Positions 22,182 through 50,113 of a DNA stretch of 64,000 nt are shown one piece after another. Both the position numbers and the translations under genes were made by a program. Where the stretch lies: contig NZ_UCNW01000004.1 of NCBI RefSeq assembly GCF_900474185.1, positions 124,001-188,000 on the forward strand. Reading direction: 5' to 3'. Below the pieces are notes generated by a model. The model searched no databases. It was not told the DNA's origin and saw only the letters and a program-made list of their open reading frames with translations. The stretch is from Synechococcus sp. UW69. GTDB taxonomy: Bacteria > Cyanobacteriota > Cyanobacteriia > PCC-6307 > Cyanobiaceae. How positions within the stretch are numbered: the first letter of the stretch is position 1; each line of letters starts with the position of its first letter.

Positions 22182-23819
22182 GTGAACGTGGGGAACAGCA
22201 CTACCAACGGTTCAGGTCGCTCCGGAACAGTGGCACCTGTTGTCCTCGCCATTCTTGATGGCTGGGGCCACCGGGACGCAAGCGAGCACAACGCGATCCA
22301 ACAAAGCGGCACACCGGTGATGGATGCCCTGTGGCATGCGTATCCGCACACGCTGATTGAAGCCAGCGGATCCCACGTTGGCCTGCCCGATCAGCAGATG
22401 GGCAATTCAGAGGTAGGCCACCTAACCATCGGTGCGGGTCGCATCATCCGCCAAGAGTTGGTGCGGATCAGCGACACCGTGCGCAGCAATCAACTGGGTA
22501 CGAGACCGGTGCTCAAGGCGCTGGTGGAACGGATCCAACAGCGGAGAGGGACCCTGCACCTGCTGGGCCTCTGCTCCGATGGCGGTGTCCACAGCCATGT
22601 GAACCACCTCTGTGGACTGATCCAGTGGGCTGCCGATAGCGGCCTCTCCGATGTCGCCGTCCATGCCATCACTGATGGTCGCGACACACCAACCCAGAGC
22701 GCACCGAACTACATCAGCCAGGTTGAAGAAGCTCTAAGCAGATGCGGCGTGGGCCAGCTCGCCAGCCTCTGTGGCCGTTACTGGGCCATGGACCGCGACC
22801 AGCGCTGGGACCGCACCGAAAAGGCCTACAACCTCTACACCGATCCGGAGATCGCCGTTGACAGCCGTAAACCTGATCAGGTGCTGGCTGCCAGTTATGC
22901 CGAGGGAATCACCGATGAATTCCTCGAACCAGTGCGCCTGCAGAACAGCGTCATCAAGGACGGCGACAGTGTTCTGGTCTTCAACTTCCGCCCCGATCGC
23001 GCTCGTCAGATCGTGCAGGCGCTCTGCCTTGCAGACTTTGAATCGTTCGAGCGCAGCCGCGTTCCCTCATTGGACGTGGTGACCTTCACCCAGGTCGAAC
23101 AGGATCTGCCCGTCCACGTCGTCTTCCCACCGGAGCCGCTCGACCAGCTGCTGGGCCAAGTGGTGGCTGATGCGGGGCTTAAGCAGTACCGCACAGCCGA
23201 AACCGAGAAATATCCCCACGTCACCTACTTCATGAACGGCGGGATCGAACAACCCTTGGATGGAGAAGATCGCCACCTGGTGCCCTCTCCAAGAGTCGCC
23301 ACCTATGACCTTTCACCGGCGATGTCTGCCGAGCAACTCACCGACAGCTGCGTTGCTGCCATCAAAAAGGCTGAATATTCGCTGATTGTGATCAACTACG
23401 CCAACCCCGACATGGTTGGGCATACCGGTGTGATGGATGCCGCGAAGGAGGCCATTCAAACGGTTGATGGATGCATAGGCCGCTTGTTGGATGCTGTGGG
23501 GCGTCAAGGCGGAACCATGCTGATCACGGCCGATCACGGCAATGCAGAGTTGATGGAGGGACCGGATGGACAGGCGTGGACAGCCCACACCACCAATCCT
23601 GTGCCCGTGATCCTGATCGAGGGAGAACGGCGCAAGCTGCCTGGCCATGGCAATGGGATCACACTCCGCGATAACGGAGGCCTGGCCGATATTGCACCAA
23701 CCTTGCTTCAGATCCTCGACCTGCCGCAACCGGAGGCCATGACCGGCCTCAGCCTGATTGCGCCAATGTCCAACATGGACCCATCCCCAAAAACCGCTCG
23801 CTTGCCTCTTTCCGTCTGA
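22182..23819 (+). CDS. gpmI: 2,3-bisphosphoglycerate-independent phosphoglycerate mutase
   Basis: 545 residues from a [13 protein letters not shown] holds the first metal aspartate; [16 protein letters not shown] carries the catalytic Ser76; [18 protein letters not shown] and ADHGNAE are the remaining metal and substrate blocks. It is the two-domain, manganese-dependent alkaline-phosphatase-type mutase of glycolysis. Another GTG at codon 17 is an alternative start. It overlaps secG by one base (TGATG). Confidence 0.96.
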
Positions 23820-24049
23820 TGCTGACCTCAATTCTGTCCTGGAGCTGGATTGGCACCGGCATTCTTCTCATTGTCCTTGTGCTGCTGCACAGCCCTAAAG
23901 GTGATGGCATGGGTGGACTGGCTGCCAGCGGCAGCTCAATGTTCAGCAGCGCCAGCAGCGCGGAAGCAACGTTGAACCGGCTGACATGGACCTGTCTTGC
24001 ACTGTTCCTTTCCTTGGCCGTGATCCTGAGTGCTGGTTGGCTGACCTAA
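23819..24049 (+). CDS. secG: Protein translocase subunit SecG
   Basis: 76 residues with two membrane spans (IGTGILLIVLVLLHSPKG and TWTCLALFLSLAVILSAGWL) joined by a Gly/Ser-rich loop with GMGGLAASGSSMFSS. SecG joins SecYE at the inner or thylakoid membrane. Its ATG overlaps the gpmI stop. Only 12 bases separate its stop from the stop of the convergent island gene, the exact left border of the AT-rich region. Confidence 0.94.
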   Translation: MLTSILSWSWIGTGILLIVLVLLHSPKGDGMGGLAASGSSMFSSASSAEATLNRLTWTCLALFLSLAVILSAGWLT

Positions 24050-24061
24050 ACCAAGCAGCAT

Positions 24062-25174
24062 TCAGGAACTCACTATTTCTGCACGCATACTCTTCATACA
24101 TACATTTTCAATCCTGCGATTGAAACACTCTATATCTTCTGAATTTCGACTCTGAGCGGCATCTACAGCAAGGGTCATCAACTCTTCTTCCGACAAAAGC
24201 GAAGCCTCATCAGAAGGCTGAAAATAATTAAAATCAACAGACATCAATTCACAATATTGCTTATTACTCGATGATGCCCTGCAGTCGAGATGACCGACCA
24301 GAGAATGCTGAAGACGAGGCGAAAACAATGAATCAAATTCAGCCATTACATCCTCACCACCAGAAAGACGCTTGCAAACACGAAAGAGCCATCGATTCCC
24401 TTCATGGGGGAGCGGGAAAAACGACTGCTGCACTGGCCGCAATGAGCTGAGATATTCAGACATCCCATGAATCAAAACCGGATGGAAGGAAAGATTCTTT
24501 CGCACGTCAAAGGATTCCAAATCTTCAAGCCCTAAGGACATCCCTGTCGAAGATAAAAAATGCTCAAGCAATGAGTAAGGATGGGAGCGTGTTGGGATAT
24601 GACAACTCACGACACTGACAGAATCACCGAGTTCCCTCACCCCATCATAAAAACGTTGATAGTTGGAATACCAATTGCGGTCTTTACCAACAAAAGACAA
24701 AGCAAGGAGGCTACGCTCAAGCGCGGTAAATTGACGCCAATTCAAATTACGATTGGATAAAACCTTCAAATCATCAAGAAGCTTTTTTCGATCTCTAAAA
24801 AACCATTGAGAGAATGCAGATACATGATAATTAGATTGCAATCTAGAGTATCCAGATATAACAACATGATCAAAGGAATGCTTTTCTAAAGCCCGTTCCG
24901 CCATCGAACACACAAGGGCTGGACGATTGCCCAGCATTTCATGACTAATAACAACCTGGGAACTCGATTGAGCGGAAATAACACGATCGACATACTTAAA
25001 GGCAGTATCGCGATTCATCTTTAGCGCTTGATCTGCATCGCGCAGTTGCGCTGGATTTAAGAAGCAAAATCCAAGACCACCCTTCGACGCCTGAGCAACA
25101 AGCCGGAGAGAGGCTTGAAGAGAGGAAGAAGCACACTTCTGAGCTCCAACATGAATGACCAGCCTTCGCGTCAT
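24062..25174 (-). CDS. Sulfotransferase-like protein A of the AT-rich island
   Basis: 370 residues. The N-terminus LVIHVGAQKCASSSLQASL resembles the 5'-phosphosulfate loop of PAPS-dependent sulfotransferases (His8, Gly10, Lys13, Ser16-18). A second block VVISGYSRLQSNYHVSAFSQW has the Arg111 and Ser119 spacing of the 3'-phosphate site. The likely role is sulfation of a cell-surface glycan or other acceptor; acceptor unknown. Base composition is lower in GC than all its neighbours up to secG, with codon use to match. It is divergent from a second member of the same superfamily, which suggests acquisition as a unit. Confidence 0.7.
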   Translation of the reverse strand: MTRRLVIHVGAQKCASSSLQASLRLVAQASKGGLGFCFLNPAQLRDADQALKMNRDTAFKYVDRVISAQSSSQVVISHEMLGNRPALVCSMAERALEKHSFDHVVISGYSRLQSNYHVSAFSQWFFRDRKKLLDDLKVLSNRNLNWRQFTALERSLLALSFVGKDRNWYSNYQRFYDGVRELGDSVSVVSCHIPTRSHPYSLLEHFLSSTGMSLGLEDLESFDVRKNLSFHPVLIHGMSEYLSSLRPVQQSFFPLPHEGNRWLFRVCKRLSGGEDVMAEFDSLFSPRLQHSLVGHLDCRASSSNKQYCELMSVDFNYFQPSDEASLLSEEELMTLAVDAAQSRNSEDIECFNRRIENVCMKSMRAEIVSS

Positions 25175-25310
25175 TTAAACCTCAGAAGCCCATATTTCAA
25201 TAAAGATTAGAACAAAACAGCGGCTCAACGCAATGCCTAAAATTTTCACTACAGAATGCAAACGACAACGTCAAAGCCAATGCTAAAGTTATTGGGATAA
25301 CTGGAGTGCG

Positions 25311-26471
25311 GTGAAAAAGACGAAGCTTTTCCTGCATATAGGCCATGGCAAAACCGGTACTTCCGCTATTCAGTCATCCCTTGCTATCGCTTCAAACGAT
25401 TTAGCCGGGCAAGGCATTAGCTATCCCATTCAGCAATCGCTACGGGATCGAGCATCTCGACTGGAAATTACGTCTGGAAATTGGGAGCCCAACTCCGAAG
25501 CGAGCTTGAGCGATGAATTGCTAGAAATCACCAAAAATAATGGAGATAATTCAAAAATTATTTTAAGTTCGGAATCACTTTTTTGGCTGATTCCAGAATT
25601 AATTCAAAACAAAAGTAAGTGGGAGAACAATATTGACATACACATCATTCTGGCAGTACGAGAGATTGAAGAGATGCTTTCTTCCGAATACCAACAACGC
25701 GTTAAGCGACATGGAGACTCCATGCCTCTAGAACAATTCCTTCGAGCAAGACATTTCATATCATCCCATCATGCAAAGGCTGCTGAAATCATTGATTTAA
25801 TGACTCAGTCAAATATCTCCAATACAATCATTAATTACTCACGGCACAAACGAGACATCTCACAATTAATTTTCAAATGTATTGGTGCTGAAGAACTCTA
25901 TCCCGCAGACCAGATGGCTGGAGCGATTATCAATCGAAGCCTAAGCCGGAAAGAACTTGAGATCCTGATCACGATCAATGCTCTTTACTACAGAAAATTT
26001 CCGTGGATTAGTACAAGAATTTCAGACGCATTAATTAAAAATCAACCCCAGCTGGAGGCACAGCAATGCAAGCTTGCTAAGCCACAGCTCGAGAAAGTTT
26101 ATGAAGAAAACGATGCTTATCTTCAAACAATTAATGCATACCTTGACCCAAATGAACAGTTGACAATGCTCTCAACTCTCAGCCATAAAGTAATACAAGT
26201 CAGTTCGCCCGAACAAGTTCAAAAAATTCGCGACGAGGAAACCATATCCATATGCCTTATCGGAGATACACTCCTACAGACCTTGACCAATGAGTCCAAG
26301 CGAAAACTCTCAAACGACACCGTTGACGCCATCATCGAGTTGAGTCAGTCAGGGAACGTTTCAAAAACCACGGAGGTTGAACTTTTGGAAGTCGCCAAAG
26401 AGAACCGGCCCCAAGGATTGAAGTTAGGAAAACTATTGGAACGCGCGAGGACAGAACTTTCAAAGCTTTAA
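25311..26471 (+). CDS. Sulfotransferase-like protein B of the AT-rich island
   Basis: 386 residues from a GTG behind a GGAG Shine-Dalgarno. LFLHIGHGKTGTSAIQSSL carries the 5'-phosphosulfate loop (Lys14, Thr15, Thr17), and IILAVREIEEMLSSEYQQRV the 3'-phosphate Arg117/Ser125 pair. About 110 residues past the catalytic core (from 290) are helical and unassigned. Only distantly similar to protein A, so not a recent duplicate. AT-rich with rare codons for this genome. The acceptor molecule is unknown. Confidence 0.7.
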   Translation: MKKTKLFLHIGHGKTGTSAIQSSLAIASNDLAGQGISYPIQQSLRDRASRLEITSGNWEPNSEASLSDELLEITKNNGDNSKIILSSESLFWLIPELIQNKSKWENNIDIHIILAVREIEEMLSSEYQQRVKRHGDSMPLEQFLRARHFISSHHAKAAEIIDLMTQSNISNTIINYSRHKRDISQLIFKCIGAEELYPADQMAGAIINRSLSRKELEILITINALYYRKFPWISTRISDALIKNQPQLEAQQCKLAKPQLEKVYEENDAYLQTINAYLDPNEQLTMLSTLSHKVIQVSSPEQVQKIRDEETISICLIGDTLLQTLTNESKRKLSNDTVDAIIELSQSGNVSKTTEVELLEVAKENRPQGLKLGKLLERARTELSKL

Positions 26472-26483
26472 TCCGCGAGTCGA

Positions 26484-26606
26484 TCAAGCTCGAGCTGGGC
26501 ATCCATTAAGTCGGATATCTCTAGAGTAATTGAGATTGAATCGCCCTAATGAATAAATAAGCCGCCCAACAGCAAACTCTTCATCGAGAAAATGAATAGG
26601 AAGCAT
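26484..26606 (-). pseudogene. Possible gene remnant or 40-residue ORF between island genes
   Basis: An ATG at 26606 opens 40 residues (LPIHFLDEEFAVGRLIYSLG, then RFNLNYSRDIRLNG) on the minus strand between two plus-strand genes. The composition looks coding, and a second minus frame beside it (DLMDAQLELDRLAD) ends just before, as if a frameshift split one old reading frame. There is no clear Shine-Dalgarno. It may be the worn end of a lost island gene. Confidence 0.3.
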
Positions 26607-26607
26607 G

Positions 26608-26613
26608 TATAAT
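26608..26613 (+). promoter_or_regulatory. Candidate -10 box for the 469-residue island gene
   Basis: A perfect TATAAT preceded directly by TG lies 26 bases before the ATG at 26639. No good -35 box is found 16-18 bases upstream, so this may work as an extended -10 promoter or may be chance in AT-rich DNA. Confidence 0.4.
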
Positions 26614-26638
26614 CAAGGATCAGAGGAAGCACAGCGGC

Positions 26639-28048
26639 ATGAAAAAAAATATTCGCGCCAAAAGGTCGGTTAAATATAAATTCAATATTCCATCTAAAAA
26701 ACTACCAAGTTCTCTTGCTCAAGAGGTTCGTAGCTCACTGTGGATAAAAATTATTCATTCCATTGAGAATAGACAAGCCGAACCAATCCTCGAACTAATC
26801 AATAAAATCGACAGGCAAAAGGGGTCACCATGCTTGCCTCATCCTTTCATAGAATCTTTGGATACTTTTCCGGTCAAAAGCATACGCCAGGGAATGTGTA
26901 ACTTTATTTTTTTTAGCGACTCAAGCAATAAAAACCATTGGATCTTGTGCCAATGCACTTCCTTTGTAGACGCCATTTTTTCGAAAAAATACTCGGGAAA
27001 GCACAATTCTTCAATTAGCGATGACACAATCTTAAAGCCTCTACAGCGAGTTCTCAAAAAAGAAAATAAGAAAAATTCAAAGCAATGCGAAAGTGAAAAA
27101 GCGGTATTCGCTGGCTATTTACTTGATCAAATCAGGCCATACCATCACTTTTACGACCAACTCAAATGGATGGTGCATTTAAAAGCCAAAAAACCTGTTA
27201 TTAGCAATAATTCATTTTTCAGCCCAAAATCCTTAAACAGAAATACCTCTTCTAAGGAGGAAGATAATCATACATTTTCGATGTTCCCGTTGGTCATCGG
27301 ATCCAATCAATTGGGAATGAAGCTTGATCAATATTCCGAGAAAATGGAGGAGATTGTATACAAAGACAGCCTTGAAAATCGGCGTGGCGGAATAATTCAT
27401 TATCAATGGAATCAAATTGTCAAAAAACTCAAAAAAATATCGCTGAGAAATAAAAAACTAACCCTTTGGTTTGGCATTTCCGGACAGAAAAGAATATGGG
27501 TAGAGCAAGAAGACTTTCTTCCAACTCTCGTACAACAGCTAAAACCATGGTTCAATTCATTTGTTTTTGTAATTGATGGGTTTACACAATATGAAGACAC
27601 TAAATATCGTGCCATTCAGGGAAGCAAAGCAACCCCTGTCAGCCAAGATCTTGAGGTTATTGATTCCATTCGGCAAAAATTATTGCCCTTTAAAAATGCC
27701 TCTGTTGTAAGTCTTGTAGGCAAAACTTATCGAAAAAAAATCCAGCAATGTCAGTCTGTTGACTTTTTCGCTGCGAACGCTGGTGCGGGCCAGCTGGTTC
27801 CACATCGGTTTTGTAAAAAGCCAGGAATCCTGCACTCAAATGAGAAGCATTGCGTTTTCCCGAAGGGTATTGATAACATTACCGTAAAATTAGTCGATAA
27901 ATCCCTCGTCAAAGATGTCGGCAACTTGTTTGCTAAAGGTAAGAGATTTGAAAACTCAGGCACTGGCTTGATTAGCTATAGCATAGACGTGCAGATTGTG
28001 GTCGAAATGATCAAAAATATGTTGAACCTAAAAAGTACGGAGTCTTAA
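26639..28048 (+). CDS. Unrecognised 469-residue island protein, possibly glycosyltransferase-like
   Basis: Very basic N-terminus (KKNIRAKRSVKYKFNIPSKK). The middle and C-terminal half alternate strands and helices: KKLTLWFGISGQKRIWVEQED, FNSFVFVIDGFTQYED, NASVVSLVGKTYRKKIQQC, and VDFFAANAGAGQLVPHRF followed by KKPGILHSNEKHC. The last part resembles the donor-binding half of GT-B glycosyltransferases such as GT9 enzymes, where a Gly-rich turn is followed by a conserved K/RPG-type segment. No signature is decisive. Next to two sulfotransferase-like genes, a role in a surface glycan is plausible. AT-rich; likely acquired. Confidence 0.6.
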   Translation: MKKNIRAKRSVKYKFNIPSKKLPSSLAQEVRSSLWIKIIHSIENRQAEPILELINKIDRQKGSPCLPHPFIESLDTFPVKSIRQGMCNFIFFSDSSNKNHWILCQCTSFVDAIFSKKYSGKHNSSISDDTILKPLQRVLKKENKKNSKQCESEKAVFAGYLLDQIRPYHHFYDQLKWMVHLKAKKPVISNNSFFSPKSLNRNTSSKEEDNHTFSMFPLVIGSNQLGMKLDQYSEKMEEIVYKDSLENRRGGIIHYQWNQIVKKLKKISLRNKKLTLWFGISGQKRIWVEQEDFLPTLVQQLKPWFNSFVFVIDGFTQYEDTKYRAIQGSKATPVSQDLEVIDSIRQKLLPFKNASVVSLVGKTYRKKIQQCQSVDFFAANAGAGQLVPHRFCKKPGILHSNEKHCVFPKGIDNITVKLVDKSLVKDVGNLFAKGKRFENSGTGLISYSIDVQIVVEMIKNMLNLKSTES

Positions 28049-28059
28049 GCACAAAACCA

Positions 28060-28086
28060 GCAATTAAAATGCTTAGTTTTAATTGC
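28060..28086. terminator. AT-rich hairpin between convergent genes
   Basis: GCAATTAAAA and TTTTAATTGC pair over 10 bases around TGCTTAG. The stem has A and T runs on its two sides, so it could end transcripts from either direction, including the island gene at 28048 and the gene ending at 28093. Confidence 0.5.
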
Positions 28087-28092
28087 TTACGA

Positions 28093-28449
28093 TCATTGCC
28101 CTGGCGCTTTCAGGCCTGATTTAAAAAAAGCGAGTTCCTTGTAAACACGATCCATCTCATACAACATTTTGGTTTCTTTCTTTTCGAGGATCTCAACACG
28201 CTTCAAAAGATCTTCTAACAATTTATTTTGCAGCGATTCAACTTGGACTTGCCTTTTTTGTACGCCTTGTGATGGTGGTGCCGCAGACCCTGCTGTAGAA
28301 AGAATTCCTCCATCCGTTTCGACATACAACAACGCCAGACGCTCCAATACCTTGGAATAGGCCTTGTCTTGCCGTCGACAGAGATCCTTGAAACGCTGGA
28401 GCGTCTCCGGGGCGAACTGAGCGGCAAAGGCACCGAGACGCTGCGGCAT
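28093..28449 (-). CDS. Hypothetical coiled-coil protein at the island border
   Basis: 118 residues from an ATG at 28449 with a GGGA element ahead of it. The N-terminal half MPQRLGAFAAQFAPETLQRF continues as KDLCRRQDKAYSKVLERLA, basic and helical like small DNA-binding proteins; the C-terminal part (VESLQNKLLEDLLKRVEILEKK and on) has a leucine heptad pattern of a coiled coil, about residues 70-112. No family recognised. The frame is open to an ATG at 28575, which would add 42 residues. Composition is between that of the island and the core. Confidence 0.55.
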   Translation of the reverse strand: MPQRLGAFAAQFAPETLQRFKDLCRRQDKAYSKVLERLALLYVETDGGILSTAGSAAPPSQGVQKRQVQVESLQNKLLEDLLKRVEILEKKETKMLYEMDRVYKELAFFKSGLKAPGQ

Positions 28450-28590
28450 TTGTCCCGACAGAACCAGACGAATCAATACATTACCCCGCGCACTTCTGCA
28501 CCCCTTACTCTTCATGCCCTGCAGCTGAAACCGCGCCCCAATCATCAAATGTCTTGAAGGCTCTAGATCTGACAAGACAATGACTGAGTC

Positions 28591-28616
28591 AAAAAAAGAG
28601 GTCCCGCAGGACCTCT
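28591..28616 (-). terminator. Rho-independent terminator after groEL
   Basis: Read on the minus strand: AGAGGTCC pairs with GGACCTCT around TGCG, followed by seven T. It lies about 55 bases after the groEL stop. Confidence 0.93.
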
Positions 28617-28670
28617 TGATATGACTGGGATATGGGTGATTCGGTGGTTTCTAAACCAACCGCACCGACG

Positions 28671-30314
<1,644 letters not shown>

Positions 30315-49695: not shown

Positions 49696-50073
<378 letters not shown>

Positions 50074-50113
50074 TTAGCAGATCGCCGATAAAAGGCGAAA
50101 GAAAAGGGGGCGT

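What the first reader, a model, noticed from the sequence alone, without database searches (positions are those of the whole stretch)
24062..28092. AT-rich accessory island between secG and the groESL region
The stretch changes sharply in base composition and codon use from the GC-rich core on either side. It starts 12 bases after secG and holds two sulfotransferase-like genes and an unrecognised protein, with no integrase or tRNA at its edge. Such islands in marine Synechococcus often carry surface modification genes under phage or grazer pressure, which is inference here.
Basis: partly seen in the sequence, partly recalled or inferred. Interest (0 to 1): 0.6.

Follow-up and report, generated by a model that had tools for sequence, protein, structure and literature searches.

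The report
Swappable sulfotransferase cassette beside groEL
Between two housekeeping genes, marine Synechococcus keep a fixed slot whose AT-rich genes, mostly enzymes that look able to add sulfate to sugars, differ, are exchanged or are deleted from strain to strain; it probably changes the cell surface and is old rather than newly acquired.

Summary
In detail: 24062-28048 is 41% G+C against 58-65% in 258 overlapping same-length windows, with codon use 6 or more s.d. off the core. It begins 12 bases after secG, without integrase or tRNA. But it is not a recent island. At least one sulfotransferase-like gene lies between secG and groEL in 22 of 26 completely read intervals of the genus, and 23 of 24 tabulated intervals are poorer in G+C than their flanks. 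No near relative of P1, P2 or P3 was found elsewhere in 300 family genomes. Two allelic cassettes cross the rpoB tree (AU p 5e-63), so they were exchanged at the same place. The four short intervals look like deletions, on weak remnants. Those four genomes also lack the Sulfotransfer_2 gene of a distant DUF6716-NeuB operon, present in 15 of 15 other near-complete genomes; at least two lineages did this, which hints at a shared glycan. Two relatives carry tyrosine-recombinase elements at the groEL 3' end with 15-bp repeats. Best reading: a replacement flexible island for strain-variable sulfation of a surface glycan. Activity, substrate and phage or grazer pressure were not tested.

The parts
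23819..24049 (+). secG, conserved left border
   Evidence: ORF; found in 30 of 34 genomes of the genus, the other four being 53-83% complete, and in 30 of 30 sampled genomes of 18 other genera
24062..25174 (-). P1: sulfotransferase-like protein of 370 aa, motif HVGAQKCASSSLQ; P-loop fold model
   Evidence: 11 full-length copies at 49% identity or more (window included) and two at 26-27% in the same interval
25281..25289 (+). TGCTAAAGT, extended -10-like element 21 bases before the P2 start; a like element is seen by eye in all 9 P1-P2 spacers printed (9 of 10 such pairs known)
   Evidence: by eye; the consensus scanner did not list it
25311..26471 (+). P2: sulfotransferase-like protein of 386 aa, motif HIGHGKTGTSAIQ (GTG start)
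   Evidence: 15 copies in the interval incl. window; no other match above 210 bits in 300 family genomes
26639..28048 (+). P3: 469 aa, no known family; probably a glycosyltransferase-like enzyme (inferred)
   Evidence: 7 copies, all in this interval; a related domain is the C-terminus of TPR proteins elsewhere in cyanobacteria, one of which also has a GT17 domain
28093..28575 (-). P4: ribbon-helix-helix-like small protein of the backbone; conservation starts near MPQRxGAF, so the true start is probably near 28443
   Evidence: (PF19839 E 0.029, below cut-off); present in the four short intervals
28596..28617 (-). intrinsic terminator-like hairpin after groEL
   Evidence: 9 pairs, T tail; 9 such sites found in the region against 5.3 in shuffles
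28671..28685 (+). 3' end of groEL, TCAATAGTCGAAGTC: single copy here; repeated beside integrase genes in two relatives (candidate attachment site)
28671..30302 (-). groEL, conserved right border

Best explanation
This is a long-resident replacement-type flexible genomic island at a fixed address (secG-groEL) of this marine Synechococcus genus. It encodes a strain-specific set of tailoring enzymes: two sulfotransferase-like proteins (P1, P2) and a glycosyltransferase-like protein (P3). Most likely they move sulfate from PAPS onto a sugar of a surface or secreted glycan, so that different cassettes give different sulfation patterns. The proposed substrate is the nonulosonate-containing glycan that the DUF6716-NeuB-sulfotransferase operon elsewhere in the genome may make. 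Cassettes are exchanged between lineages, most simply by homologous recombination in the conserved flanks, and are sometimes lost by deletion. Integrase elements that use the groEL 3' end bring extra genes in some relatives. Shown: position, composition, conservation, conflict of the cassette with the rpoB tree, selective constraint, integrase genes beside repeats of the groEL end, and absence of one gene of the NeuB operon in the genomes with a short interval. Inferred: sulfotransfer activity, substrate, surface location, deletion as the cause of the short intervals, and any effect on phages or grazers.
For: 22 of 26 complete intervals hold a sulfotransferase-like gene. Relatives have Pfam Sulfotransfer_1, _2 or _4 genes, or weak _3 matches, at the same place, with GT2, GT61 and GT92-like genes. 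Near relatives were found only here: P2 12 matches above 500 bits and none other above 210, P1 8 above 460 and none other above 326 (300 family genomes), P3 7 and none other above 66, X 16 above 360 and none other above 298 (34 genus genomes); most of these strong matches are members of the query alignments, so the information lies in the lack of others. Cassette trees conflict with rpoB: G001+G003 as a clade is rejected on P2 (p 4.7e-63), the P3 carriers as a clade are rejected on rpoB (p 8e-11). dN/dS is 0.05-0.24 for P1-P3 where computable. The P1 model aligns to sulfotransferases over 203-216 residues (6xl8 Z 9.0, 3rnl Z 8.9, 3uan Z 8.7) and to kinases over some 140-170. APS kinase is present in 19 of 19 near-complete genomes. 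The Sulfotransfer_2 gene of the NeuB operon is absent in 4 of 4 genomes with a short interval and present in 15 of 15 other near-complete ones.
Against: P1 and P2 pass no curated sulfotransferase cut-off, and no solved structure is found by sequence. The P1 model is middling (pLDDT 66), Foldseek gave nothing at E 0.001 or below, and designed P-loop proteins and kinases score a similar or higher Z. P2 was not modelled; the P3 model failed (pLDDT 34), so its enzyme class rests on domain context. The co-absence rests on two changes on one gene tree, too few for a test; NeuB itself was not searched genome-wide, and Sulfotransfer_3 genes are not lost in step (G013 5 matches, G029 3, G004 and G028 1 each). 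P1 remnants in the short intervals exceed shuffles only in G004, narrowly. No peak of substitutions was seen on the groEL side.
Confidence: 0.6

Rival explanations
1. A recent horizontal acquisition from an AT-rich donor, as the title 'island' suggests, with no particular link to other strains.
For: Strong composition and codon deviation; no relatives of P1-P3 in the secG-groEL stretches read in other genera.
Against: Homologues at the same place in most genomes of the genus, in intervals poorer in G+C than their flanks in 23 of 24; P1 remnants at loci without P1; purifying selection with high synonymous divergence (dS above 1.3) between the window's copies and those of G022 and G008.
Confidence: 0.08
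2. An additive island: cargo of integrative elements that insert at the groEL 3' end and decay, the window holding an old insertion that has lost its integrase.
For: G015 (AG-670-B23) and G016 carry tyrosine-recombinase genes beside 15-bp copies of the groEL 3' end. G016 has sulfotransferase, GT2 and GSCFA genes to the left of such copies.
Against: The other 24 complete intervals, window included, have a single copy of the repeat. In the window P1-P3 lie beyond P4 and the groEL terminator, and in G015 the P2-P3 pair lies outside the element. Neither neighbour of P1-P3 (secG, P4) matches a mobility family (P4; secG by its known identity).
Confidence: 0.2
3. P1 and P2 are P-loop proteins that are not sulfotransferases (for instance kinases), so that the locus acts on something other than sulfation.
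For: No Pfam/NCBIfam hit above cut-off; the P1 model is close to small kinases in Z.
Against: Motifs of the HxGxxKTGTxxxQ type; the longest alignments of the P1 model among the rows shown are to sulfotransferases; 3 of 8 distant P2 relatives scanned touch Sulfotransfer_1 below cut-off; curated sulfotransferases occupy the same slot in relatives.
Confidence: 0.12
4. The cassette is a defence or toxin-antitoxin module.
For: Hypervariable position with mobile elements in two relatives; P4 is ribbon-helix-helix-like.
Against: No defence or toxin family above cut-off was seen in the scans made of the interval genes; PADLOC was not run; the recognised cargo is dominated by sulfotransferase and glycosyltransferase genes.
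Confidence: 0.03

Closest known systems
Replacement flexible genomic islands (Lopez-Perez et al. 2014, PMC4033161; abstract, outline and passages read)
   Same: Same position in different strains, similar function with different genes, exchange between lineages without mobility genes at the boundary
   Different: The cargo is tailoring sulfotransferases instead of O-chain, exopolysaccharide or glycosylation clusters; one border is also an integrase site in two relatives; no substitution peak was seen on the groEL side; an exposed structure is only inferred
Genomic islands of marine Synechococcus (Dufresne et al. 2008 PMC2441476; Dore et al. 2020 PMC7522525; passages read)
   Same: Compositionally deviant, accessory, glycan genes among the cargo
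   Different: The words sulfotransferase, groEL and secG do not occur in the main text of PMC2441476; sulfotransferase and groEL do not occur in that of PMC7522525 (secG not searched there). Supplements were not read, so the island may be listed there without a name
Sulfated exopolysaccharide clusters of cyanobacteria (synechan xss genes, PMC8205485; passages read)
   Same: Sulfotransferases with glycosyltransferases, probably for sulfated extracellular glycan
   Different: xss is one large cluster with Wzx/Wzy genes; here only tailoring genes stand between two housekeeping genes, and P1, P2 and X match no Pfam family above cut-off

Membership tests
Replacement flexible genomic island | Present at the same place in most strains, with similar function but different genes | tested here: met
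   22 of 26 complete intervals hold sulfotransferase-like genes of several families: P1, P2, X; Pfam Sulfotransfer_1, _2, _4; weak _3 matches
Replacement flexible genomic island | Exchange between lineages | tested here: met
   P2 data reject the rpoB clade G001+G003, AU p 4.7e-63; P3 carriers not a clade on rpoB, p 8e-11 (groups were named after the tables had been seen)
[quoted passage not shown]
   Met in the window and 23 other complete intervals (single groEL-end copy), not in G015 and G016
Replacement flexible genomic island | Peaks of (mostly synonymous) substitutions at the conserved boundaries | tested here: inconclusive
   No peak over groEL; the gpmI-secG side is more divergent than the groEL side in several pairs with different cassettes, but only about 1 kb was available
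Replacement flexible genomic island | Codes for an exposed cell structure | not testable with these tools
   Inferred from enzyme type and the partly co-absent NeuB operon only
PAPS-dependent sulfotransferase superfamily (P1, P2) | 5' phosphosulfate-binding P-loop near the N-terminus (motif recalled from general knowledge) | tested here: met
   HVGAQKCASSSLQ (P1) and HIGHGKTGTSAIQ (P2), with invariant H, G, K and Q in the alignments
PAPS-dependent sulfotransferase superfamily (P1, P2) | Score above a curated family cut-off | tested here: not met
   No Pfam or NCBIfam match above cut-off; nor for 8 distant P2 relatives in Pfam. Hence 'sulfotransferase-like'
PAPS-dependent sulfotransferase superfamily (P1) | Sulfotransferase fold | tested here: inconclusive
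   Model pLDDT 66; Z 8.5-9.0 over 203-216 residues for 6xl8, 7scd, 3rnl, 3uan and 1vkj, tied with kinases over shorter spans and below designed P-loop proteins. P2 was not modelled
PAPS-dependent sulfotransferase superfamily | Sulfotransfer activity | not testable with these tools
   Needs protein chemistry
Integrase-borne additive island / tycheposon-like element (definition recalled) | Tyrosine recombinase and flanking attachment repeats, usually at a tRNA | tested here: not met
   No recombinase match and a single groEL-end copy in the window; two relatives have both, at groEL instead of a tRNA

The most novel reading that the evidence does not exclude
A 'sulfation serotype' locus: in marine Synechococcus the secG-groEL slot sets, by swapping whole cassettes between species, which sulfate pattern decorates a nonulosonate-bearing surface glycan made by a separate conserved operon. 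Lineages that give up the glycan delete both loci together, and the groEL 3' end is a standing integrase port through which new tailoring genes enter.
Probability: 0.28. Interest if true: 0.78.

Novelty: new variant of a known kind. Interest (0 to 1): 0.55.

Why it matters
What makes strains of an abundant ocean phototroph differ to their phages and grazers is a long-standing question, usually put to large glycosyltransferase islands. This is a small, fixed locus of few enzymes, with natural alleles and natural short forms in close relatives, so the question could be tested by one replacement in a tractable cultured strain. It also adds sulfotransferase-like families that Pfam does not name (P1, P2 and the related X genes; P1 and P2 not in NCBIfam either), and a candidate integrase attachment site in a chaperonin gene.

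Tried and rejected
Rejected: recent island from one donor (relatives carry it); tRNA-bound island (no tRNA in or beside it); a locus reserved for all sulfotransferases (Sulfotransfer_2 genes are common elsewhere: of the matches listed only one each of G012 and G021 lies in the interval).

Led nowhere: structure of P3 (pLDDT 34); solved-structure searches by sequence; viral contigs for P1 and P3 (no relative; for P2 two distant ones); the 'AT-richness tracks the host' test (Pearson 0.63 over 15 genomes, but 0.12 without G030); a boundary substitution peak. P1 remnants against 100 shuffles of two-base blocks: clear in G015 (38.9 bits against a best shuffle of 25.8), G002 (29.3 against 26.2) and G024 (27.7 against 24.6); narrow in G004 (25.8 against 25.4); not above shuffles in G028 (23.9 against 25.4), G029 (19.2 against 23.9), G013 (21.6 against 23.5) and G003 (19.6 against 25.4). 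The best matches of G004, G028 and G029 lie at the expected place for the P1 C-terminus; that of G013 does not. PADLOC was not run. Library searches for this locus found no paper naming it (listings only apart from the papers opened).

Known weak points of counts: G031 and G032 intervals are cut too short to tell, G010 and G027 are cut but hold cargo; all four were left out of the 26 complete ones. The 22 include weak cases: G017 by a sub-cut-off Sulfotransfer_3 match, G009 and G025 by 26-27% identity to P1. The strong-match counts are largely the query's own members. In one search the script stopped with an error at the last of 13 loci (G040), which was not read further; G278 was not extended; G050 and G062 end with their contigs. 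In one search only matches above 45% identity were printed. In one search rpoB was taken from one strand only, mended.
Full report
WHAT IS THERE. The stretch 24062-28048 is 41.1% G+C, while 258 overlapping windows of the same length in the rest of the 64 kb range from 58.0 to 65.4%. GC3 falls from about 0.71 to 0.39-0.42, and the codon score of P1, P2 and P3 lies 6.5, 6.0 and 6.7 s.d. below that of 48 core ORFs. The left edge is sharp: secG ends at 24049 and P1 ends, on the minus strand, at 24062. The right edge is softer, because P4 (28093-28575) is also deviant. P1 and P2 diverge from a 136-base spacer. In the nine such spacers printed (of ten P1-P2 pairs known), a TGCTAAAGT-like element stands shortly before P2 (by eye); the consensus scan did not list it.

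RELATIVES. secG was found in 30 of 34 genomes of the genus and the DNA beyond it was read. Of 26 intervals read from secG to groEL, 22 hold at least one sulfotransferase-like gene and four (G004, G013, G028, G029) hold only P4 among ORFs of 80 aa or more. P1 occurs full length at 49% identity or more in 11 genomes including the window, and as a 26-27% relative in two; P2 in 15; P3 in 7. A further family, called X here (motif HKTATTSFQ or HKTASSSFQ), occurs in up to three copies. Other genomes have at this place Sulfotransfer_1 (G007 by scan; G005 and G006 by homology, with Sulfotransfer_3 just over its cut-off), Sulfotransfer_2 (G012, G021), a sub-cut-off Sulfotransfer_3 match (G017) and Sulfotransfer_4 (G016), with GT2, GT61, GT92-like, GSCFA and methyltransferase genes. 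The intervals are poorer in G+C than their own flanks by 0.08 or more in 23 of 24 genomes tabulated; G007 (0.63 against 0.65) is the exception.

LOCUS SPECIFICITY. The profiles were built from genes of this interval, so strong matches here are expected; what counts is that no others were found. In 300 genomes of the family the 12 matches of P2 above 500 bits all lie at secG, and the next best is 210 bits, in another genus. For P1, 8 matches above 460 bits lie at secG (one, G023, not a member of the alignment) and the others reach 326 bits or less. For P3, 7 lie here and the others reach 65 bits. Within the genus 16 X matches above 360 bits lie here; four of 199-298 bits and weaker ones lie elsewhere. 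Sulfotransferases in general are not confined to the slot. In 30 genomes of 18 other genera secG is present; groEL lies convergent within 3.6 kb in 24 (15, 9 more); in two it was not within 10 kb and four could not be judged. No P1, P2 or P3 relative was found in the parts read. The content there looks like housekeeping genes (msrB- and amt-like by eye), P4 in two g9 genomes, and in G129 a GSCFA-like gene (by eye).

OLD, EXCHANGED, SOMETIMES SHORT. Between the window and G022, P1-P3 have dN/dS 0.07-0.09 with dS 1.5-1.8, against dS 0.69 in gpmI (some more distant pairs are saturated). On rpoB G001 and G003 are sisters (100/100), yet G003 carries the P2-P3 cassette and G001 the P1-P2-X cassette; the P2 data reject G001+G003 (p 4.7e-63) and rpoB rejects the P3 carriers as a clade (p 8.1e-11). 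A like conflict is seen for G000 (P3 type) and G023 (X type), neighbours on rpoB (99; 80/98), unresolved. Loci without P1 retain collinear P1 remnants with stops in G015, G002 and G024, above all 100 shuffles. The short intervals show weaker ones: G004 narrowly above shuffles, G028 and G029 at the right place but not above shuffles, G013 none. DNA similarity of G022 to G028 and G029 continues 82 and 107 bases past secG, into P1. I therefore read the short intervals as deletions, with moderate confidence.

FUNCTION. P1 and P2 have phosphosulfate-binding-like P-loops. P2 aligns with X over 294 columns (hhalign probability 97%), with P1 only over the P-loop (60%). The P1 model (pLDDT 66) aligns with sulfotransferases over 203-216 residues at Z 8.5-9.0 (6xl8, 7scd, 3rnl, 3uan, 1vkj), with kinases over some 140-170 at similar Z, and best with designed P-loop proteins. 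P3 could not be modelled. Its distant relatives are the C-terminal part of TPR proteins in other cyanobacteria, one with a GT17 domain, so a glycosyltransferase-like role is an inference. APS kinase is present in 19 of 19 near-complete genomes.

AN UNEXPECTED LINK. An operon about 45 kb downstream of the island holds three DUF6716 (putative glycosyltransferase) genes, NeuB and three sulfotransferase-like genes (L233). The same layout was read in G022, and in G024 and G002 without a match to the third sulfotransferase. Its Sulfotransfer_2 gene (matches of 112 bits or more) is present in 15 of 15 near-complete genomes with cargo in the slot, and absent in 4 of 4 with a short interval. In those four the right-hand neighbours of the operon remain, and the operon's genes are not in the stretches read beside them, apart from a 32% NeuB relative in G013 (matches above 45% identity printed). 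NeuB was not searched genome-wide. The four are not one clade on rpoB (p 9.6e-64) and need two changes, too few for a phylogenetic test. Sulfotransfer_3 genes do not follow: G013 has 5 matches, G029 3, G004 and G028 1 each. This suggests, without proving, that both loci serve one glycan.

MOBILITY. G015 and G016 carry tyrosine recombinases in the interval (the G016 one is just below the Pfam cut-off but matches PHROG integrases at 8e-19). In G015 a 15-base copy of the groEL 3' end stands before the recombinase gene and another at groEL, where a further copy stands 20 bases away; in G016 two copies stand before the recombinase gene, besides that at groEL. The other 24 complete intervals, the window among them, have one copy. 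The groEL 3' end is thus a candidate attachment site for such elements. In G015 the P2-P3 pair lies outside the element.

COMPARISON AND VERDICT. The anatomy fits replacement flexible genomic islands (PMC4033161) better than additive ones. It departs in cargo, in the double nature of the border, and in showing no substitution peak by groEL. Sulfotransferases in cyanobacterial extracellular polysaccharide clusters are known (PMC8205485). A fixed slot of sulfotransferases between two housekeeping genes was not found in the library searches made. I rate it a new variant of a known kind: solid as genome anatomy, moderate as a function claim.

Noticed in passing
L043:7368-7382 and L062:19221-19255 (G015); L056:7445-7480 (G016): 15-bp copies of the groEL 3' end beside tyrosine-recombinase genes: groEL as a candidate integrase attachment site.
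   Followed up: partly
L233:53-8686 (outside the window, same genome): DUF6716 x3 - NeuB - three sulfotransferase-like genes; its Sulfotransfer_2 gene is missing in the same four genomes that have a short secG-groEL interval.
   Followed up: partly
L064:2769-3683: A contig filed as an uncultured proteobacterium carries Synechococcus-like P1, P2 and a truncated P3 next to an integrase N-terminus; mis-binning or chimera not resolved.
   Followed up: no
28093-28575: P4 is probably shorter than the listed ORF; conservation starts near MPQRxGAF (about 28443). Weak PHROG match phrog_5354 (E 0.0011).
   Followed up: no
L195 (G129, another genus), L056:7546-9446 (G016): A GSCFA-family gene with a partner of no known family in the secG-groEL interval of G016 (Pfam), and a similar-looking pair in another genus (by eye).
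   Followed up: no
G006:C1:2382675 and G005:C1:1506477: P1-like genes (182-193 bits) about 17-19 kb downstream of secG in two genomes, perhaps a second variable spot.
   Followed up: no
L154, L155, L156: The P3-like domain is fused to long TPR proteins in other cyanobacteria, beside what look by eye like nucleotide-sugar genes.
   Followed up: partly
50011-50099 (-): ATPC RNA motif (RF01067, E 1.2e-13).
   Followed up: no
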